From the IMG/VR virus record IMGVR_UViG_3300027963_005227, positions 1 to 64,000 of that record: 64,000 bases of DNA; one strand, given 5' to 3'. Numbering within the stretch: position 1 is the first letter of the stretch; every line of letters begins with the position of its first letter. Of the stretch, positions 16,833 to 44,037 are shown in pieces. The notes beneath the pieces are model-generated. The model was not told the DNA's origin and did no database searches. It saw only the letters and a list, made by a program, of their open reading frames with translations. Both the position numbers and the translations under genes were made by a program. The stretch comes from a virus.

Positions 16833-16884
16833 GATTTATTCTAAAAAAATATAGATTTAATAAATAATATAATATAATTAACAT
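16833..16884 (+). repeat. Copy 2 of the sequence flanking fcl (before nrdA)
   Basis: This repeat of 15817-15867 includes the bases coding Asp-Leu-Phe-stop of nrdB out of context, then an AT-rich stretch with two overlapping TATAAT boxes (16868-16873 and 16873-16878) just before the nrdA ATG at 16883. Confidence 0.65.
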
Positions 16885-19660
16885 GGAAAAAAATATTTAC
16901 TGGCTCAATGCAGATTCTCGCAAATTTTTAAGCAGCGGTTATTTGATGGACGGCGAAACTGCTGAGCAGAGAATATCTGATGTTGCACAAACAGCAGAAA
17001 GTCTTTTATCTGTAAGCGAGGATTGTATTACTAAAGTTAATGATTACCTCAAATGCAAAAGTTTTGCTGAGAAGTTCGCAGACTATCTTGAGCGTGGATT
17101 TTATTCATTATCATCTCCTAATTGGTCAAACTTTGGCAGAAAAAGAGGTCTTCCAATTTCTTGTTTTGGAACTTATCTAGAAGATTCTATCGAGTCTATT
17201 ACTGGTCATAAACTTGCTGAAATCAGCATGATGACAAAATCTGGGGGAGGCACTAGCGCATTTTTTGGCAATGTTCGTCCTAGAGGATCTAAAATTTCAT
17301 CTGGTGGAGAATCAACAGGTTCAGTTCATTTTATGGAACTCTACGATAAGATGATGACTGTTGTCTCTCAGGGAAATACGAGAAGAGGAGCTTGTGCAAT
17401 ATATCTTCCAATTGATCATGGTGATATCGAAGAATTTTTAAAAATTAAATCAGAAGGAAATGATATTCAAGAACTCTCAATTGGAGTCTGCGTCACTAAT
17501 AAGTGGATGCAGGACATGATTGATGGCAATAAAGAAAATAGAAGAATCTGGGGTCTTGTGATTCAAAAGAGATTTGAAAGCGGATATCCATACATCTTTT
17601 TCTCTGATAACGCTAATGATCAAGCCCCTCAAGTTTATAAAGATAAAAATTTAAAAATCAGTCATTCAAATCTTTGCGTCACTGGAGATCAAAGGGTTAT
17701 TTCTAATTTTGGAATTTTAACGGCAAAAGAACTCTATGAAAATGGAGATGAGTTAATTCTTTTTGATAATGAAAAAGAAGTAAAAGCATCAAAAATGAAA
17801 TTAGTTGAGAAAGATGCTGATGTTTTTGAAATTAAACTTGAGAATGGAATGTCGCATAAAATTACATCCTATCATAAAGTTTCTACAAAAGATGGGGATA
17901 TAGCATGTCACGATTTAAAAATTGGAGATTCTGTTGCGGTTCAAACAAATAAGGGAATTTTTGGAAATAATGATATGACCAAAGAAGCATTTCTTCTTGG
18001 TTTATATCAAGCTGATGGAACTCAACATAAAGATTATATTATGATTGATATTTGGAGAAATGATTTTGATTTAATTGAAGAAGTTCAAAATGCTCATGAT
18101 TTCGTATCTGATAAATATAAAACTCAAATTTCTCTCTATAATAATAGAGTTTATCAAAACGCTAGTTTTTGCAACTGTGTTGTTGCTGAAGGGTCTCATG
18201 AGAAAAAAAGACTATCTAGTAAAGCACTTAAAAAAGCATTGAATTTTGAAAAAGGATACGTTCCAGAATGGATCTGGTCGTCCAATGAAGAAACGCTATG
18301 GCAATACATTAGAGGTCTTTACTATGCAGACGGAACTGTGTTTAAATCTAAATCATCTGGAGAACCACTTCAAATTTCACTAGCTTCAATTAACAAAGAA
18401 TTTCTAGAAGAAGTGCAAATTATTTTAGCAAATCTTGGAATGCAATCATCAATTCGCCTTTTAAGAGAAAGTTGTGAGTCGTTACTTCCTGATGGACATG
18501 GAGGAAACAAAATGTATAAAACTAAAACTGCTTGGAGATTAATTATTGGAAATAAAAATGATGCATTAGTTTTTAATAAAAATACTAAATTTCTTGATAG
18601 AAAAAATATTATTCTAGAGGATCGTGAATATAGAGATAATACTAAAAAATTCTATAAAGTTTCATCTATTTCTAATATTGGGCAAGAGGATGTCTATTGT
18701 TGCACAGTAGAATCAAAATCTCATCACTGGATCTGCAATGGAGTTGTTACTCACAACTGTAATGAAATAATGCTTGCTGATTCTCCAACAGAATCTTTTG
18801 TTTGTAATTTGTCATCTCTGAATCTGGATAAGTGGGAAGAGTGGAAAGATACTGATGCTGTTGAAACAATGGTATTTTTCTTGGATGCTGTCATGACAGA
18901 GTTTATTAATAAAACTGAAAACATGGCATTCATGAGTCATGCTCGCAACTTTGCAATCAATCAGAGAGCGCTTGGTATTGGAGTTCTTGGTTGGCATTCA
19001 CTACTTCAGTCTAAAATGATTCCTTTTGAATCAATGGATGCTAAAATTTTAAATAACCAAATTTGGAAAACAATCAGAAATCGCGCCGATGTGGCTACTG
19101 AGAAATTAGCTGAAATCTATGGAGAACCAGCATTACTTGAAGGATATGGTCGTCGTAATGTGACTACAATAGCTGTAGCTCCAACAGTAAGCTCAAGCTT
19201 TATTCTTGGTCAAGTCTCTCAGGGCATTGAACCTTTAAATGGCAATTACTTTGTTAAAGGATTAGCTAAGGGCGATTTCTCTTATCAAAATCCCTATTTA
19301 GAAAAATTGCTAATTGAAAAAAATCAAAACTCCGCAGAAGTTTGGAAATCTATTTTAATTCGAGGAGGATCTGTTGCTCATTTAGATTTCTTGTCTGAAA
19401 ATGAAAAAGCTACTTTTAAAACTTTTGGAGAAATCTCTCAGAAAGAAATTATCATTCAAGCCTCTCAACGTCAAAAATACATTGACCAAGGTCAAAGCTT
19501 AAACATCATGATTCCTCCTTCAGCATCTGCCAAAGAAGTTAATCAACTTATGATTTTTGCATGGGAACAAGGAATCAAAGGCTTGTATTATCAAAAGAGC
19601 GCTAATCCAGCGCAAGAACTAGCTCGCTCTATTCTCAATTGCGAATCATGCCAAGCATAA
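16883..19660 (+). CDS. nrdA: Ribonucleotide reductase large subunit with intein
   Basis: The 925-residue reading frame is an RNR alpha chain of about 564 residues interrupted by a 361-residue intein (residues 265-625). Extein motifs include PISCFGTYLEDS with the first redox Cys, MTKSGGGTS, a QGNTRRGACAIYLP segment, SNL-Cys-NEI with the radical Cys directly after the intein, SFVCNLSSLNL with the second redox Cys, and a C-terminal CESCQA tail that is reduced by thioredoxin or glutaredoxin. There is no N-terminal ATP-cone, so it lacks that allosteric on/off domain. Splicing must occur before the enzyme can work because the intein separates the radical Cys from its upstream chain. It pairs with nrdB. 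Confidence 0.93.
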   Translation: MEKNIYWLNADSRKFLSSGYLMDGETAEQRISDVAQTAESLLSVSEDCITKVNDYLKCKSFAEKFADYLERGFYSLSSPNWSNFGRKRGLPISCFGTYLEDSIESITGHKLAEISMMTKSGGGTSAFFGNVRPRGSKISSGGESTGSVHFMELYDKMMTVVSQGNTRRGACAIYLPIDHGDIEEFLKIKSEGNDIQELSIGVCVTNKWMQDMIDGNKENRRIWGLVIQKRFESGYPYIFFSDNANDQAPQVYKDKNLKISHSNLCVTGDQRVISNFGILTAKELYENGDELILFDNEKEVKASKMKLVEKDADVFEIKLENGMSHKITSYHKVSTKDGDIACHDLKIGDSVAVQTNKGIFGNNDMTKEAFLLGLYQADGTQHKDYIMIDIWRNDFDLIEEVQNAHDFVSDKYKTQISLYNNRVYQNASFCNCVVAEGSHEKKRLSSKALKKALNFEKGYVPEWIWSSNEETLWQYIRGLYYADGTVFKSKSSGEPLQISLASINKEFLEEVQIILANLGMQSSIRLLRESCESLLPDGHGGNKMYKTKTAWRLIIGNKNDALVFNKNTKFLDRKNIILEDREYRDNTKKFYKVSSISNIGQEDVYCCTVESKSHHWICNGVVTHNCNEIMLADSPTESFVCNLSSLNLDKWEEWKDTDAVETMVFFLDAVMTEFINKTENMAFMSHARNFAINQRALGIGVLGWHSLLQSKMIPFESMDAKILNNQIWKTIRNRADVATEKLAEIYGEPALLEGYGRRNVTTIAVAPTVSSSFILGQVSQGIEPLNGNYFVKGLAKGDFSYQNPYLEKLLIEKNQNSAEVWKSILIRGGSVAHLDFLSENEKATFKTFGEISQKEIIIQASQRQKYIDQGQSLNIMIPPSASAKEVNQLMIFAWEQGIKGLYYQKSANPAQELARSILNCESCQA
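17675..18757 (+). mobile_element. NrdA intein with LAGLIDADG endonuclease
   Basis: The intein starts with Cys (residue 265 of the precursor, CVTGDQ) and ends with VVTHN before a Cys +1 residue (residue 626). Block A is visible as VTGDQRVISNFG, block B as the SHKITSYHKV region, block F as VYCCTVESKSHHW, and block G as NGVVTHN-C. Two LAGLIDADG-type helices, AFLLGLYQADG and YIRGLYYADG, show that the homing endonuclease is probably still functional. The +1 Cys is the catalytic radical Cys of the reductase. It is a class 1 intein by its N-terminal Cys. Confidence 0.93.
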
Positions 19661-34762: not shown

Positions 34763-37357
34763 ATGATCTACGATTATGAATTAGAAAAACAATTACTTGC
34801 AGCTTTAATCAAAGAGCCAGATGATTATTGTGAGATTTCTAATTTTATCAACTCTAGAGATTTTTATTCTGAGAATACTAATTTACACTCTTCAATCTTT
34901 TCAATCATCAAACAAGCTATTGATAAGAGCGAAGGAATTGACGAGGTTATTATTGCTCAGAGAGTAAATTCTCTAGGATTATCTTTTGAGGATAATGTTA
35001 ATCCATCTGATTATATTAGATCTTTAGGAATGCGAAAAGTTCCCAAAGGAAACCTAATTAAAACAGCCAGGGAGTTAAAAAAATACACAGTACGTAGAGA
35101 AATCTACGAGTCTGCTCGCGAAGTCGCCAAGAAAATGAAGGGCATTAGTCCTGATTCAACTTACACAGACATCATTTCTCAAGCAGATCAAATCTATAAT
35201 TCTCGTATTAATTTATATGAATTAGGAAATGATACTCCAGAAAATATTTACGAAGAGATGGAAGCTCTCGTTGAGGAGAGGGGAAACAATCCCGTTGTGG
35301 AATTCGGCATGATGGGTCCACATAAAAAAGTAAATCAAATCTACGGATCTCTTCTTCGCCCTGGCAATATCACTGTGATTGTTGCTAGAAGTGGCGTTGG
35401 TAAAATGAATCCATTATATACTAAAGTCTTAACTCCAAATGGATTCGTTGAGATGAGAGATATTTTAGTTGGATCTGAAATTGTATGTCCAAATGGCAAA
35501 ACTTCAAAAGTCCTTAAAACATTCGATCATCAACAAAAAGATATCTATCGCGTTACTTTTGAAGACGGAAGATTCTCCGATTGTGGTTTAGATCACTTGT
35601 GGAAAATTTATACAAGAAATAATAAAGGATTATATCATTGGGAAGTATCTGATACTCAAAAGATAATTAATGACCTATCTCAAAAAAGTAAAAAAGTATT
35701 TATTCCATTAGTATCTGAAATCAATTCTATAGATAAGGAGTTTCTCTTAGATCCATATATTGTGGGAGCTTTAATTGGCGATGGCTGTTTGAGAGATGGT
35801 TTTGTTATAGAATCAGCTGATAGTTTTATTCCTAATAAAATTGAAAAGCTTTTAAAAGAAGACTGCGAAGTTTCAATTAGAGAAAGCTCGAAAAGCCAGT
35901 CTAAAACTTATAGATTTTTTACTTCAAAAGGGGGATCTTTTAAAAATCCACTCATAGAGCATTTAAAAGATTTAAATCTTTATGGTAAATTATCTTATGA
36001 TAAATTTATTCCAGAAGAGTATTTCTACGGATCTTTTAATCAGCGTTTAGATCTTCTGCAAGGTTTAATGGATACAGATGGAACTTTGAGCAAAAGCAGG
36101 GGAAGAAATGGAGATTCATGTAGCTATGGAGGATTAAGCTACTCTACATCTAGCAAACAATTATCAACAGATATCCAGCGCTTGATCTGGAGTCTCGGAG
36201 GAAAAGCTAAAATCTCCGAAAGAATTTCAACATATAAAAATAAAGATGGAGAAAAAGTCAATGGAGCTATTTCTTATAGTGTTAGAATTAGAATGCCAAA
36301 TCCAAAAGATGCATTTTCTCTTCCAAGAAAGAAAGATTTGGCTCTAAGTAAAGAAAATTATCAATACTCTAATCTAAAACTAAGAATATCTAATATCGAA
36401 AAATTAGAAAATAAAGAAGATTGCCGCTGTATTGAAATTGAGGATGGCGAACATTTATATATTATCGATGAGTTTATTGTTACTCATAATACTCAATTTT
36501 GCATGGATTACAGTACCAAGGTTGCTGTTAAATATAGCATTCCAGTATTGCACTTCGACAATGGAGAAATGAGCAAAGAAGAACTCATTATGCGGCAATG
36601 TGCTGCACTCTCTGGAGTTCCCATGCATTTGATTGAAACTGGCAACTGGCGCAAAGCTGGACAAGAAGTGGTTGATAAAATTAGATCAGTCTGGAGCCAA
36701 GTTAAAAATCTCCAGTTCTACTACTACAATGTTGGTGGCATGGATGTTGATAGTATGATTAAAACTCTCAAGCGTTTTTATTATGGAAAAGTTGGTCGAG
36801 GCAATAGAATGATCTTCTCGTTTGACTATATTAAAACTACTTCCGAATCTGGAGGAGGAAAGAATGAGTGGCAAGTTGTTGGTGAGATGGTGGATAAATT
36901 TAAAAAGTGCGTTCAAAAGGAAATCTTGTATGATGGAAATCCCATCATTCCCATGATCACTTCAGTTCAATCTAACAGAAGTGGAATTACAAACAACCGA
37001 AACTCCTCTAATGTTATTGATGATGAAAGTGTAGTTTCTCTTTCTGATCGAATTACTCAGTTTTGCTCTCACATGTTTATTCTTAGAAACAAAACTGCTG
37101 ATGAAATTGAATCTGAAGGTCGTAATTTTGGAACTCATAAACTCATCAACGTTAAAGCTAGACATCTTGGTCAAGATATTGCTGGAGCAGTTGAGCCTAT
37201 TAGAATTGGAGATGCTCTTAGAAAAAATTTCATCAATTTAGATTTCAAAAACTTCTCCATTAGCGAGCGAGGTGATCTTCGTGATATTGCTAATTCAATG
37301 GATACAAATGGAGAATTAGAAACCGATGAAGACGATGACCTGCCAAGTTTCCGTTGA
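34763..37357 (+). CDS. dnaB: Replicative DNA helicase DnaB with class 3 intein
   Basis: The 864-residue frame is a DnaB-type helicase of 502 residues with a 362-residue intein at 215-576. The N-terminal domain (residues 1-110, starting with YDYELEKQLLAALI) and linker precede the RecA-like core. The intein splits the Walker A motif ARSGVGK|T between Lys and Thr. Downstream are PVLHFDNGEMSKEELIMRQ, the Walker B-type RMIFSFDYIKT, and the SDRITQFCSHMF region. The C-terminus is acidic. Splicing is therefore needed for ATP binding. It has its own strong promoter and the primase gene overlaps its end by 32 bases. Confidence 0.92.
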   Translation: MIYDYELEKQLLAALIKEPDDYCEISNFINSRDFYSENTNLHSSIFSIIKQAIDKSEGIDEVIIAQRVNSLGLSFEDNVNPSDYIRSLGMRKVPKGNLIKTARELKKYTVRREIYESAREVAKKMKGISPDSTYTDIISQADQIYNSRINLYELGNDTPENIYEEMEALVEERGNNPVVEFGMMGPHKKVNQIYGSLLRPGNITVIVARSGVGKMNPLYTKVLTPNGFVEMRDILVGSEIVCPNGKTSKVLKTFDHQQKDIYRVTFEDGRFSDCGLDHLWKIYTRNNKGLYHWEVSDTQKIINDLSQKSKKVFIPLVSEINSIDKEFLLDPYIVGALIGDGCLRDGFVIESADSFIPNKIEKLLKEDCEVSIRESSKSQSKTYRFFTSKGGSFKNPLIEHLKDLNLYGKLSYDKFIPEEYFYGSFNQRLDLLQGLMDTDGTLSKSRGRNGDSCSYGGLSYSTSSKQLSTDIQRLIWSLGGKAKISERISTYKNKDGEKVNGAISYSVRIRMPNPKDAFSLPRKKDLALSKENYQYSNLKLRISNIEKLENKEDCRCIEIEDGEHLYIIDEFIVTHNTQFCMDYSTKVAVKYSIPVLHFDNGEMSKEELIMRQCAALSGVPMHLIETGNWRKAGQEVVDKIRSVWSQVKNLQFYYYNVGGMDVDSMIKTLKRFYYGKVGRGNRMIFSFDYIKTTSESGGGKNEWQVVGEMVDKFKKCVQKEILYDGNPIIPMITSVQSNRSGITNNRNSSNVIDDESVVSLSDRITQFCSHMFILRNKTADEIESEGRNFGTHKLINVKARHLGQDIAGAVEPIRIGDALRKNFINLDFKNFSISERGDLRDIANSMDTNGELETDEDDDLPSFR
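35405..36490 (+). mobile_element. DnaB class 3 intein with LAGLIDADG endonuclease
   Basis: The intein starts with Met-Asn-Pro rather than Cys, Ser or Ala, so it lacks the usual first nucleophile. The three residues that define class 3 inteins are present: Trp two residues after the block B His (GLDHLW, residue 280 of the precursor), Cys at block F position 4 (CRCIEIE, residue 556) and Thr two residues before the terminal Asn (IVTHN, residue 574). The +1 residue is Thr. Endonuclease helices YIVGALIGDG and LLQGLMDTDG are visible. By precedent (mycobacteriophage Bethlehem DnaB intein) splicing would start from the block F Cys. Confidence 0.88.
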
Positions 37358-39461: not shown

Positions 39462-40214
39462 ATGCTCGCTCTCTTCAAATCCAGTTGTTCTATTGGACGC
39501 AGTATCCTAACTCTAAATGATCCTAATAATTGTCATGAGAATGGACCAGATAGCATTTTCTCCATTGCTGTTGAGAATGATTTAAAAACAGTTACTCTTG
39601 TGGAAGATTCCATGGTTGGATTTTTCGATGCATTTAGAATCAGTCAAGCTCTTGGAATTCAATTGATTTTTGGATTACGATTCTCCTGCTGCGATCAGCT
39701 TGATAGTCTAACATCTAATCATAAATTAATTGCATTTGCTAAAAATGATCAAGGATGTAAAGACTTGTACAGTCTCTACTCTAAAATTTATGTTGATTTT
39801 AATGGCAAAATTACTCATGAGCAATTGCAATTAGCATGGACTGATAACTTAAAATTAGCTGTTCCATTCTATGATTCATTCATTCATCAGAATAATTTTT
39901 ACTTTCAAAGCTGCATTCAAGAGTTTGGAAATATTAAGCCAGTCTTTTTTATAGAGTCTAATAATCTTCCATTCGATGATGCTCTGGAAAGAGAAGTTTT
40001 AAAATTTACTGAAAACGGCAAAAAGTTTGAAGTGCAAAAAACTAAATCTATTTATTATAAAGATAAGTGCGATGTAGAAGCTTTTCAAACTTATAAAATT
40101 ATTTGTAATCGAACCTTTGGTCGCCAAGCTACACTGTCCTCTCCTAATCTAAATCACTTCGGAAGTGATGAGTTTTGTTGGGAATCTTATCTAGAACAAA
40201 CTAATGAACGATAA
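39462..40214 (+). CDS. PHP-like domain of DNA polymerase III alpha as a separate gene
   Basis: The 250-residue protein matches the N-terminal PHP region of bacterial DnaE in layout: an opening strand, DSIFSIAVENDLKTVTLVEDSMVGFFDAF (equivalent to the segment with the DHGNM motif), then GIQLIFGLRF and a KLIAFAKNDQGCKDLYSLYS stretch. The C-terminal part resembles the link to the palm (SYY-K-DVEAFQ then NRTFGRQ). The metal-binding His-x-His and Asp-His-Gly residues are replaced (FKSSCS, EDSM), so nuclease or pyrophosphatase activity is unlikely. It is separated from the polymerase by an exonuclease gene, which it overlaps by 11 bases. Confidence 0.72.
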   Translation: MLALFKSSCSIGRSILTLNDPNNCHENGPDSIFSIAVENDLKTVTLVEDSMVGFFDAFRISQALGIQLIFGLRFSCCDQLDSLTSNHKLIAFAKNDQGCKDLYSLYSKIYVDFNGKITHEQLQLAWTDNLKLAVPFYDSFIHQNNFYFQSCIQEFGNIKPVFFIESNNLPFDDALEREVLKFTENGKKFEVQKTKSIYYKDKCDVEAFQTYKIICNRTFGRQATLSSPNLNHFGSDEFCWESYLEQTNER

Positions 40215-40836
40215 TCTACTTCGCTTTAATAATTCTCAAAAATATATAGCACTCGACACTGAGACAGAAGGACTAAATCTAGTAAAGTCTAGACCATGGC
40301 AAGTTGCGTGGATTATTGCAGAAGGCAAACAAATCAAATCCAAGCACAGTCACTTTATCAAGTGGCCGAATCTAACAGTATCTGAAGGTGCTGCTAAAGT
40401 TACTGGATTCTCCATGGAGAAATATGAAAGACTCGCAGAAGATCCAATGGAAGTTTTTAATAAGCTAAAGCCTTATCTTTACAATCCAGAGTATAAAATA
40501 ATTGGGCAGAATCTTCTGGGGTTTGATGTTTATATGATTAATATCTGGAGAAAAGAAATGGGATTAAAATCAGACTACTCTTTCATTGATCGAATCATTG
40601 ATACTAAATCAATTGCTGCTGCAATCTTTAAAAATATTTGGCCCGATAAGAGCAACTTTACTAGCTGGCAATATAAACTTCTTCATGTTAAAGAGAAGGG
40701 TCTTAAAACATCTCAATTGACCTTGCTCAAGCATTATGGCATCTCATTTGATCAGAGCAAGTTGCACGATGCCCTTTACGATATTGAAATGAACTTCGAT
40801 ATTTTCCTCAAACAAATTTACGACATTGAAATATGA
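40204..40836 (+). CDS. DnaQ-like 3'-5' exonuclease
   Basis: The 210-residue protein has the DEDDh motifs: ALDTETEGL (16-24), IIGQNLLGFDVYMI near 98-111, and a final KLHDALYDIEMN with the His and Asp of motif III. It is the likely proofreading subunit for the C-family polymerase encoded next, with which it overlaps by four bases. The order PHP, exonuclease, polymerase recalls PolC, in which the exonuclease is inserted in the PHP domain. Here the three are separate genes. Confidence 0.88.
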   Translation: MNDNLLRFNNSQKYIALDTETEGLNLVKSRPWQVAWIIAEGKQIKSKHSHFIKWPNLTVSEGAAKVTGFSMEKYERLAEDPMEVFNKLKPYLYNPEYKIIGQNLLGFDVYMINIWRKEMGLKSDYSFIDRIIDTKSIAAAIFKNIWPDKSNFTSWQYKLLHVKEKGLKTSQLTLLKHYGISFDQSKLHDALYDIEMNFDIFLKQIYDIEI

Positions 40837-42617
40837 TTACTAGTTTTTCTCCTTACAAAAGTCCATTTCCAGCGGGGGTTAAACTTCCAGAAATTCGTGT
40901 AGATCAAAAATACTACGATCTTCTTGGATGCCAATCAAGCATTTCTAATTTTAACTTTTTGCGCAAGCTTTGCTTTGAAGGCGTTAAGAAGAGAAAAATT
41001 GACGAGCTTCCAAACAAGCAAGTTTATTATGAAAGATTAACAATGGAACTGTCAATCCTAAAGGAATTAGGATTCATTGATTATATTCTTTTGAATTGGG
41101 ATGTTATCAACTATTGTCATGAGAATAAAATCCCAGTGGGTGCGGGGCGTGGAAGTGCTCCAGGCAGTTTAGTCCTGTATTGCATCTCAGTTACAAACAT
41201 TGATCCAATCAAATACGATCTCTTCTTTGAACGATTTGTTTCTAAAAGCAGAGCTAAAATCATTGAAAGCGAAGGAGAGATTTATCTAGACGGATCTCTT
41301 CTCGCAGACATTGATAATGACATTAGTTATGAGCGCAGAAATGAAGTGATTGAATATATTAATAATAAATACAAAGGAAAAACTTCTAAAATTCTCACAA
41401 TGAACACTTTGAGCGGCAAGCTTTGTGTTAAAGAGTGTGGAAAAATTGTTGCTGAAATGTCAGAAACAGAGGTGAACATCATTAGTGATTCTATTCCCAA
41501 AAAGTTTGGAAAAGTTTTCAAGCTAAAAGATGCTTTTGAAGAGAGCGAAGTTTTTAAAACTTTCGCCTTATCTCACAAAAAAGTATATACCATTGCCAAC
41601 AAACTAGAGGGTTTGAATAAGAATACTGGAGTTCATCCTTCAGGAATTGCAATTAGTTTTTATAATCTTCCAGACATTATGCCAATCCAAAAGACTGGCG
41701 AAGATGCTATTGTATCTGGATACGACATGAACAGCGTCTCAGCATTAACTGTTAAATTCGACATCTTAGGACTTAGAACTCTGTCGGTAATTCATGATGT
41801 TTGTTCTATGATCGGAATTAACGTGGACGACATTAATGTTGAAGATCCTAGCATTTATGCAGCGATGCAAATCTTGAAAAGTCCCAAGGGATTGTTTCAA
41901 ATTGAAGCTGATACGAACTTTCGAGTAGCTCAAAAAGTAGCTCCGAAAAATCTTCAAGAATTATCTGCTGTTGTAGCCTTAGCGCGACCTGGAGCTTTAG
42001 ACTTTGTTGATCGTTATGCAGACTATTCTCGCACTGGAGAGTTTCAATCTATTCATCCATTCTTTGATGATGTGCTTTCATCTACTGGTGGATTATGTTT
42101 ATACCAAGAACAAACACTTCAAATGTGTAAGAAAATTGGATTCAGCTTGGATGAAGCTGAACAGCTTAGAAGAATTATTGGCAAAAAGAAAGTTGATCAA
42201 ATGGTTGTCTGGCAAGATAAAATTAAAAATAAAATTATAGAAAATGATCTAGATCCAATTGTTGGAGATGTTTTTTGGAAGGTTGCATCAGACTCTGCAA
42301 ATTATAGTTTTAATAAGTGCATTTTTGAAGAAGAGACGGTTGAATTAGATTCGGGAGAAATAAAAATGTTGAAAGATATTAACTATGGAGATTATATAAA
42401 AGCTTTCGATATTCAAAACGAGCAGGATCATTATGTTCGAGTATTAGATATAGTGAAAAATGAAAAAGAAATTTTTGAATTTGAAATGGAGAATGGGGTT
42501 TCTATCAAATGCTCTATGGAGCATAAGTTTTTATGTGAGCATGATTTAAAAATGCATCCTATTAAAGATATCCTTGAAAATAATTGGCTAATTATGTGTA
42601 ATAAGAATATCATTTAG
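40833..42617 (+). CDS. dnaE: DNA polymerase III alpha, N-terminal half plus N-intein
   Basis: Residues 1-495 are the palm, fingers and start of the tail of a DnaE-type polymerase: VGAGRGSAPGSLVLYC, SLLADIDNDIS with catalytic Asp-x-Asp, HPSGIAIS, KFDILGLRTL with the third Asp, and ANYSFNK at the end. Residues 496-594 are an N-terminal intein half. The frame stops at 42617. The other half of the polymerase is encoded by the gene at 42850. The two should be joined by protein splicing at FNK|SHS, a conserved site near the end of the fingers. This is the only replicase gene in the window, and both catalytic motifs are intact. Confidence 0.9.
   Translation: MITSFSPYKSPFPAGVKLPEIRVDQKYYDLLGCQSSISNFNFLRKLCFEGVKKRKIDELPNKQVYYERLTMELSILKELGFIDYILLNWDVINYCHENKIPVGAGRGSAPGSLVLYCISVTNIDPIKYDLFFERFVSKSRAKIIESEGEIYLDGSLLADIDNDISYERRNEVIEYINNKYKGKTSKILTMNTLSGKLCVKECGKIVAEMSETEVNIISDSIPKKFGKVFKLKDAFEESEVFKTFALSHKKVYTIANKLEGLNKNTGVHPSGIAISFYNLPDIMPIQKTGEDAIVSGYDMNSVSALTVKFDILGLRTLSVIHDVCSMIGINVDDINVEDPSIYAAMQILKSPKGLFQIEADTNFRVAQKVAPKNLQELSAVVALARPGALDFVDRYADYSRTGEFQSIHPFFDDVLSSTGGLCLYQEQTLQMCKKIGFSLDEAEQLRRIIGKKKVDQMVVWQDKIKNKIIENDLDPIVGDVFWKVASDSANYSFNKCIFEEETVELDSGEIKMLKDINYGDYIKAFDIQNEQDHYVRVLDIVKNEKEIFEFEMENGVSIKCSMEHKFLCEHDLKMHPIKDILENNWLIMCNKNII
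42318..42614 (+). mobile_element. N-terminal half of the DnaE split intein
   Basis: The 99 residues start with Cys (CIFEEETVELDSGEIKML) and have the block A pattern, an ending like INYGDYIKAFD, and a block B-like GVSIKCSMEHKFL with the essential His. The frame ends MCNKNII. An endonuclease domain is absent, as in other split inteins. Confidence 0.85.
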
Positions 42618-42886
42618 TATATTTTTCTTTAGATTTTGCATTTCCTGAATTTAAAATTGCAATCGAATGCCAAGGAACTTATTTTCATATAGATCCTCGA
42701 TTCTATCCAAATGGACCATCTGGGAAAATACAAAAAAGAAACTTTGGAAGAGATAAATCTAAGAAAAAATTTCTTGACAAAAAGGGTTGGACTATGATAG
42801 AGTTATGGGAGACTGAAATAAATAACGAAGAATTTAAAAATATTTTAACATGCAAGCTACAAGAATTAAATCTTTTAAACAATTAG
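42605..42886 (+). pseudogene. 5'-truncated EDxHD (Vsr-like) homing endonuclease between the intein halves
   Basis: The gap between the two polymerase halves is not empty. In the third frame an open stretch from 42605 to 42886 encodes LDFAFPEFKIAIECQGTYF, then HIDPRFYPNGPSGKIQKRNF, an RDKSKKKF helix, and KGWTMIELWETEI. That is the catalytic half of the Vsr-like homing endonucleases described between the halves of phage genes broken by split inteins. There is no ATG or other usual start in frame before the catalytic part, and the N-terminal region is missing, so it is probably a remnant. Its last codons overlap the start of the C-half gene. Confidence 0.75.
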
Positions 42887-42963
42887 GTATTAAAAAAACT
42901 ATTGATTTGGAAGTCGATTCCATTGATCATAATTTTTATCTTAAAAACTTAATTACATCAAAT
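42850..42963 (+). mobile_element. C-terminal half of the DnaE split intein
   Basis: The 38 residues contain a block F (TIDLEVDSIDHNFYLKN) and block G (LITSN) and are followed by a Ser +1. The penultimate residue is Ser rather than His, as in cyanobacterial DnaE split inteins (..ASN). The length fits known C-inteins. Confidence 0.88.
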
Positions 42964-44037
42964 TCACATTCGATTTCATATGCGAATCTTGCAGCTATTA
43001 CAATTTATTTAAAATTCAATTATCCACAACAGTTTTATTTGAGTCTCTTAAAGTACGCTCAATTTGAACCAAATCCCCATGAAGAAATCTCGAAAATAAC
43101 ACAAGAGCTTCCATTGTTTGGCATCAAGCTTTTAGCTCCAGACTTGGCTCAGTCTGAAATTGATTTTAAAATTCAAGGAAACGATATTCGTTACGGATTA
43201 AACTCTATTAAAGGAGTGTCTACTAAATCATTAGAGAGTTTGATTGAGTTTCGCGAAGGGCAGTTCAATAACAAGTACGAGGTCTTTTTAGCTGCCAAGC
43301 AAGCAGGGCTTAATATTGGCGTCTTATCCGCTTTGATTCAAGCTGGGGTACTTGATCACTTCTTGAATAAAGACCGCTGTAGGCTTGTCCTAGAGGCGCA
43401 GGCGTTCAACCTACTCACTGACAAGGAGAAGCGTAGCGTGATAGCTCTTGGAGAGCGCTTCAACTATGATGTTTTGAAGTGCATTCACGAATGCACAACT
43501 CAATCTCTTGTAGACGATAACAATAAATTAATCTTTTCGGAAAAGAGATTCACCACTTTTAAATCAAAATACGAACCATACAAAGTAATTTATGAAAAAA
43601 ATCATAAACACTTAAAATTCGCTAATTGGTATTTTGAAACTAAGCTACTGGGATACAGTCACTCTACAAACATTAGAGAAGTTTTTACTGAAAACTCTGG
43701 AGAAACATTAATTTCTTCTAGTGGAATTTCTGAGCTTGGAAACAATGAAAAAATTAAATTTGTCGGAACTGTGAGTGATGTAACCTCTAGAACTAGCGCG
43801 AGAGGAAATAAATATGCTAGATTAGAAATGTCTGATGAATCTGGAAATTTGACAGGACTCATGATGGATTCTACGCAAAATGCAACATACTCTAATTTTC
43901 TTCAATCTGGCAAGGCTCTTCCCAAAAAAGGAGAAGTTATCATCTTGACTGGAAGAAAAAGCAATGATATCATCAGCATCAGTAGCCTCTCGCCCTTAGA
44001 AGATAAAATTTATATGAAGCTATCTGATATAAAGTAA
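42850..44037 (+). CDS. dnaE: DNA polymerase III alpha, C-intein plus C-terminal half
   Basis: This frame starts with 38 residues of C-intein (MQATRIKSFKQLG ... LKNLITSN) and then the extein SHSISYANLAAITIYLKFNYP, which matches the highly conserved SHS-x-x-YA-x-x-x-Y-x-x-x-YLK-x-x-YP segment of DnaE fingers. A helix-hairpin-helix-like region (IGVLSALIQAGVLDHF) and an OB-fold (IKFVGTVSDVTSRTSARGNKY) follow. The start codon at ATG 42850 overlaps the nuclease remnant in another frame. The product is only useful after trans-splicing with the N-half. Confidence 0.9.
   Translation: MQATRIKSFKQLGIKKTIDLEVDSIDHNFYLKNLITSNSHSISYANLAAITIYLKFNYPQQFYLSLLKYAQFEPNPHEEISKITQELPLFGIKLLAPDLAQSEIDFKIQGNDIRYGLNSIKGVSTKSLESLIEFREGQFNNKYEVFLAAKQAGLNIGVLSALIQAGVLDHFLNKDRCRLVLEAQAFNLLTDKEKRSVIALGERFNYDVLKCIHECTTQSLVDDNNKLIFSEKRFTTFKSKYEPYKVIYEKNHKHLKFANWYFETKLLGYSHSTNIREVFTENSGETLISSSGISELGNNEKIKFVGTVSDVTSRTSARGNKYARLEMSDESGNLTGLMMDSTQNATYSNFLQSGKALPKKGEVIILTGRKSNDIISISSLSPLEDKIYMKLSDIK

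What the first reader, a model, noticed from the sequence alone, without database searches (positions are those of the whole stretch)
40833..44037. Replicative polymerase broken by a split intein around a decayed homing endonuclease
A DnaE-type polymerase stops after a 99-residue N-intein that begins at Cys after the conserved FNK. The C-half starts with a 38-residue C-intein ending SN before the matching SHS. Between the halves, in another frame, lies the catalytic part of a Vsr-like (EDxHD) homing endonuclease. This is the fractured-gene arrangement described for phage split inteins in metagenomic data (gp41, NrdA, NrdJ, IMPDH). The insertion site (FNK|SHS) differs from the cyanobacterial DnaE split intein site, four residues upstream (EY|CFNKSHS), so it appears to be a separate DnaE allele. 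Trans-splicing would be essential to replicate the genome.
Basis: partly seen in the sequence, partly recalled or inferred. Interest (0 to 1): 0.92.

Follow-up and report, generated by a model that had tools for sequence, protein, structure and literature searches.

The report
Phage DNA polymerase split by intein
A virus of bacteria makes its DNA-copying enzyme in two pieces that probably weld themselves together by protein splicing, and the DNA-cutting gene that once helped this element spread has been half deleted here, while relatives carry it intact, replaced by unrelated cutters, or missing altogether.

Summary
A DnaE-type polymerase gene of a tailed phage (IMG/VR record) is broken after FNK by an N-intein (42318-42614) and a stop; the second ORF starts with a 38-residue C-intein directly before SHS. 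Between them lies an untranslatable 93-codon remnant of an EDxHD (Vsr-like) homing endonuclease gene.

Relatives show how it arose. A close relative (L006) has the same halves around an intact 316-aa endonuclease gene; the window lost 674 bp of it, and its present N-half stop comes from that deletion. About 84 of 90 related polymerases are uninterrupted.

The same intein, split at the same point, recurs in 11 phage lineages with free EDxHD, LAGLIDADG or antisense GIY-YIG genes, an HNH domain fused to the N-half, or no endonuclease. Intein and endonuclease are far more alike between phages than the flanking polymerase, so the element moves as a unit. Selection keeps the N-intein. Trans-splicing is by far the best explanation; it is untested.

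One correction: FNK|SHS is not a new intein site. Bacteria and other phages carry uninterrupted inteins there.

A member of a known kind (fractured gene with split intein), but an unusually informative set.

The parts
39462..40214 (+). PHP-domain ORF, upstream part of the same replicase (context)
   Evidence: PF02811 6e-6; same order in L010 and L036
40204..40836 (+). DnaQ-like 3'-5' exonuclease ORF (context)
   Evidence: PF00929 3e-10
40833..42317 (+). DnaE N-extein: palm and fingers up to ...SANYSFNK
   Evidence: PF07733, PF17657; 98% identical to L006, 61-76% to uninterrupted relatives
42318..42614 (+). N-intein: Cys1, block B CSMEHKF (SxxH); last residues KNII derive from the deletion
   Evidence: alignments A2/A7; dN/dS 0.06-0.18 against relatives; nearest solved relatives cyanobacterial DnaE split inteins and gp41-1
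42602..42605 (+). junction of a 674-bp deletion relative to L006
42615..42617 (+). stop codon of the N-half, lying in former endonuclease coding sequence read in another frame
42605..42886 (+). remnant of EDxHD homing endonuclease gene (last 93 of 316 codons plus stop; no start codon)
   Evidence: 100% aa identity to L006 over the 90 residues compared; PF18741 2e-4, DUF559 5e-3; fold of the L006 copy
42850..42963 (+). C-intein, 38 aa, block F VDSIDHNFYL, ends SN
42964..44037 (+). DnaE C-extein from SHS to the stop
   Evidence: PF14579 8e-17; continuous with N-extein in uninterrupted relatives

Best explanation
A fractured phage dnaE gene. The two ORFs give two polypeptides, DnaE-N::IntN and IntC::DnaE-C. 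The halves associate into one Hint fold; Cys1 attacks the K-C bond, the chain passes to Ser+1 of SHS, Asn cyclises, and FNK-SHS is sealed, restoring the fingers domain of the only DnaE found in this phage. The element entered the gene as split intein plus free EDxHD endonuclease gene and spread by homing into uninterrupted alleles. In this lineage a recent 674-bp deletion removed the endonuclease's start, DNA-binding region and first catalytic helix, so it can probably no longer home, but trans-splicing must continue. Shown: anatomy, deletion, block-wise mobility, purifying selection on IntN, alternative endonucleases at the same split point. Inferred: the splicing reaction, essentiality and homing itself.
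For: The residues of class 1 splicing are present here and in 10 other lineages: Cys1, (S/T)xxH, block F Asp/His, terminal Asn, Ser+1. IntN dN/dS 0.06-0.18. L006, L010, L011, L244 and L312 (same contig as L267) carry intact 316-aa endonucleases between the halves, overlapping the start of IntC in L006, L010, L011 and L312. L010 vs L011: element 90-92% identical in DNA, exteins 69-72%. Split carriers do not form a clade on the DnaE tree (AU p 7.5e-11, long branches present), although nine of their inteins do (support 99/97). About 84 of 90 relatives have an uninterrupted site. One DnaE in the 120-kb L004 contig. In L036 the endonuclease is on the opposite strand, so readthrough cannot join the halves. 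No intron match in Rfam.
Against: No protein or splicing data. The penultimate residue is Ser, not His, though cyanobacterial DnaE inteins also have Ser or Ala there (PMC5874633). No clear Shine-Dalgarno before the C-half ATG, but most genes in this window lack one. The viral records are fragments, so a second polymerase elsewhere is not excluded. Between window and L006 the C-intein has two replacement and no silent changes, too few to judge.
Confidence: 0.87

Rival explanations
1. Gene in pieces without splicing: the two DnaE chains assemble non-covalently and the intein halves are inert tails, as described for a phage ribonucleotide reductase split by an endonuclease gene (Friedrich 2007, cited in PMC10448857).
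For: Such a case exists in phages; the PHP and exonuclease parts of this replicase are already separate ORFs.
Against: Both intein halves keep the catalytic residues in 11 lineages and IntN is under purifying selection; the break lies inside the conserved FNKSHS fingers motif.
Confidence: 0.06
2. Decaying, non-functional locus: the deletion damaged the element and the polymerase is dead or the contig comes from a defective population.
For: The endonuclease is truncated and the N-half stop is a by-product of the deletion.
Against: The exteins keep an open frame with mostly silent differences from L006 (69 silent, 8 replacement codons in the N-extein); the deletion allele occurs in two assemblies; L260 and L322, without any endonuclease, keep the split halves.
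Confidence: 0.04
3. A frame or assembly error hides a normal continuous intein.
For: Continuous inteins occur at this site in bacteria and other phages.
Against: Same split point in 11 lineages; separate assembly with the same deletion; antisense endonuclease in L036.
Confidence: 0.01
4. The halves are joined at the RNA level or by recoding.
For: Phage genes are often interrupted by introns (general knowledge).
Against: No Rfam intron match; both sides of the break are intein sequence; antisense gene between the halves in L036.
Confidence: 0.01

Closest known systems
Fractured genes with phage split inteins and EDxHD endonucleases (Dassa et al. 2009, doi 10.1093/nar/gkp095)
   Same: Conserved phage enzyme gene interrupted by a split intein with a free-standing Vsr-like endonuclease gene between the halves; uninterrupted alleles exist
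   Different: The paper itself is not held, so absence of DnaE from its list was not checked.
Phage PolB split inteins (Aes123 PolB1, CP21 PolB1; MIJ3 PolB, where an HNH gene lies between the halves)
   Same: A phage replicative polymerase broken by a split intein; the Aes123 intein is studied as a trans-splicing tool (PMC12707363, PMC6892783)
   Different: Family B polymerase rather than DnaE; Cys1 intein here rather than the cysteine-less type
Cyanobacterial DnaE split inteins (Npu, Ssp)
   Same: Same host protein, split at the equivalent point, SN at the C-end; closest solved relatives of IntN (2e-13)
   Different: Inserted before CFNKSHS rather than before SHS; in cyanobacteria no endonuclease gene between the halves (own knowledge)
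Continuous DnaE inteins at FNK|SHS in bacteria
   Same: Exactly the same insertion point with Cys1 and Ser+1
   Different: One polypeptide, penultimate His, separate part of the intein tree
gp41-1 split intein
   Same: Phage split intein; second-best solved relative of IntN and best of IntC
   Different: Other host gene

Membership tests
Natural split intein, class 1 | Nucleophile Cys at intein position 1 | tested here: met
Natural split intein, class 1 | Block B (T/S)xxH | tested here: met
   SMEH; S/T-x-x-H in all relatives
Natural split intein, class 1 | Block F Asp/His, terminal Asn, Ser/Cys/Thr +1 | tested here: met
   DHNFY, SN, SHS
Natural split intein, class 1 | Penultimate His (usual, not strict) | tested here: not met
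   Ser in all 12 sequences aligned; Ser or Ala also in cyanobacterial DnaE inteins, which splice
Natural split intein, class 1 | Halves encoded by separate ORFs | tested here: met
   same split point in relatives
Natural split intein, class 1 | Trans-splicing activity | not testable with these tools
   needs co-expression
Fractured gene arrangement | Free-standing endonuclease gene between the intein halves | tested here: met
   intact in L006, L010, L011, L244, L312; only a remnant in the window itself
EDxHD homing endonuclease | Vsr / I-Bth0305I fold | tested here: met
   L006 copy: 3r3p TM-score 0.80 (target-normalised), 1cw0 E 9e-4
EDxHD homing endonuclease | Catalytic E-D-H-D set | tested here: inconclusive
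   D, H, D present in L006 and in the remnant; the aligned E is His in L006/L010/L011, Gln in L244, Glu in L312
Cyanobacterial DnaE split intein allele | Insertion between Y and CFNKSHS | tested here: not met
   inserted after FNK; cyanobacterial site from own knowledge
Gene in pieces without splicing | No splicing element at the break | tested here: not met

The most novel reading that the evidence does not exclude
The split DnaE intein is the stable unit and endonuclease genes of unrelated families are interchangeable passengers on it; and the cyanobacterial DnaE split inteins used in biotechnology descend from such phage fractured dnaE genes. In trees of concatenated halves an Npu-type sequence falls among phage DnaE inteins rather than among bacterial continuous inteins of the same site (support 97/92; only 93/87 with more rows), and cyanobacterial DnaE inteins are the top PDB matches of the phage IntN profile.
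Probability: 0.2. Interest if true: 0.82.

Novelty: new variant of a known kind. Interest (0 to 1): 0.64.

Why it matters
One phage polymerase family offers a natural series at a single site: empty, split with a complete endonuclease gene of three unrelated families (one antisense) or a fused HNH domain, split with a half-deleted endonuclease (this window), and split with none. That makes questions about inteins testable: why genes stay split after the endonuclease is lost, whether splitting happened once, and how endonucleases are exchanged. It also gives a set of diverged natural split inteins with native exteins, and a lead on where the cyanobacterial DnaE split inteins came from.

Tried and rejected
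Scan of 84,980 species' genomes with the N-intein alignment found no relative. Rfam search of the region: nothing. No isolated phage in the GenBank collection has a near relative of the intein or endonuclease, so host and lifestyle remain unknown. The original fractured-genes paper is not in the library; FNKSHS is not mentioned in any held paper. With added sequences the split inteins no longer form one clean clade (a continuous phage intein, L333, falls inside and L319 is unplaced), so a single origin of the split is likely but not shown. The long-branch warning on the DnaE tree limits the deep placements; L010 lies among uninterrupted alleles on a short branch. A supposed footprint of a lost endonuclease in L260 (GTFKEDLKCKL against GEFKNILKCEL) is too short, and overlaps IntC coding sequence, to count as proof. 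The Npu sequence used was written from memory and only partly cross-checked by the PDB alignments.

Full report
Check of the observation. The window is part of a 74.6-kb viral record of a tailed phage (lambda J-like tail module). The replicase is encoded in pieces: PHP ORF 39462-40214, exonuclease ORF 40204-40836, polymerase N-half 40833-42617 and C-half 42850-44037. The N-half runs through ...SANYSFNK and continues at Cys 42318 into 99 intein codons; the C-half opens with 38 intein codons ending SN before SHSISY. The frame 42605-42883 between them encodes the end of an EDxHD/Vsr-like nuclease and has no start codon. All is as reported.

How this state arose. L004 (another assembly; 26 mismatches over 54.5 kb) has the same locus. 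L006, 98% identical in DnaE protein, has the same halves around a complete 316-aa gene: NUMOD3 DNA-binding motif and a C-terminal nuclease. AlphaFold on the L006 protein gives a confident nuclease domain (residues about 200-316; the rest of the model is poor) that matches the catalytic domain of I-Bth0305I (3r3p, target TM 0.80) and Vsr (1cw0). The window lacks 674 bp of this gene (223 of 316 codons), and the deletion gave the N-intein a new tail (KNII) and a stop inside former endonuclease sequence. The remnant differs from L006 by silent changes only (4 silent, 0 replacement), so the deletion is probably young.

Mobility. About 84 of 90 related phage DnaE loci are uninterrupted at FNKSHS. 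Between L010 and L011 the block IntN-endonuclease-IntC is 90-92% identical in DNA while the DnaE sequence is 69% before and 72% after it. Between window and L006 the block is 97-98.5% against 93-95% in the exteins, a smaller contrast in the same direction. On a DnaE extein tree the carriers are scattered among uninterrupted alleles, and holding them together is rejected (AU p 7.5e-11; some carriers are on long branches). This is what homing of the whole element predicts.

One site, many endonucleases. Scans for the interrupted codons and the intein search give 11 lineages of the same DnaE family split at the same point: free EDxHD gene (L006, L010, L011, L244, L267), EDxHD remnant (window), free LAGLIDADG gene (L250 and identical-looking copies), GIY-YIG gene on the opposite strand (L036), NUMOD4-HNH domain fused to the N-intein followed by a stop (L319/L339), and no endonuclease (L260, L322). 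A second phage DnaE lineage (L298, L305) is also split at this site with another free gene between the halves. Nine of the inteins form one clade (99/97), so splitting most likely preceded the exchange and loss of endonucleases; a larger sample blurs this.

Splicing. All carriers keep Cys1, (S/T)xxH, block F Asp and His, terminal Asn and Ser+1. IntN dN/dS is 0.06-0.18. A profile of the IntN halves finds cyanobacterial DnaE split inteins (2e-13) and gp41-1 (7e-10) as nearest solved structures; the IntC profile finds gp41-1 (9e-7), the Spl DnaX mini-intein and cyanobacterial DnaE. Because the antisense gene in L036 rules out readthrough there and no intron is found, trans-splicing is the only simple way to rebuild the fingers domain of the sole DnaE found in the 120-kb L004 contig. 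It has not been demonstrated.

Comparison with what is known. The layout is that of the fractured genes of Dassa et al. 2009 (cited in PMC12350094 and PMC3653736; the paper is not held). Split inteins in phage PolB polymerases are established (PMC12707363, PMC6892783). The insertion point is not the cyanobacterial one, but it is not new: 46 bacterial DnaE genes in a truncated sample carry continuous inteins exactly there, and several phages do too. I found no report of a split form at this point in the held library, nor of one split intein with several endonuclease families, but the library lacks most subscription papers.

Verdict. A real, probably functional fractured dnaE gene with a recently crippled homing endonuclease. 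As a single locus it is a new member of a known kind; the series of alternative endonucleases around one split intein makes it a variant worth following.

Noticed in passing
window 16883-19660: NrdA ribonucleotide reductase with a continuous 361-aa intein (residues 265-625) containing a LAGLIDADG domain.
   Followed up: partly
window 34763-37357: DnaB helicase with a continuous insert of about 360 aa containing a LAGLIDADG domain, placed right after the GVGK nucleotide-binding motif and ending VTHN|T, apparently an intein; three replication or nucleotide genes of one phage would then carry inteins.
   Followed up: partly
window 39462-44037: The phage replicase is encoded as separate PHP, exonuclease and polymerase ORFs, the same order in L010 and L036.
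   Followed up: partly
L011:271-1104: A free LAGLIDADG endonuclease ORF sits between the exonuclease and polymerase ORFs.
   Followed up: partly
window, gene starts: Most genes lack a recognisable Shine-Dalgarno sequence and have A/T-rich leaders, hinting at a host that does not rely on it.
   Followed up: no
L298, L305, L316: A second, unrelated phage DnaE lineage is also fractured at FNK|SHS, with a free nuclease-like ORF between the halves.
   Followed up: partly
phages record OM634661.1 (hit H1): Bacillus phage vB_BauM_KLEB27-3 has its DNA polymerase III alpha annotated as two genes with an HNH endonuclease under the match.
   Followed up: no
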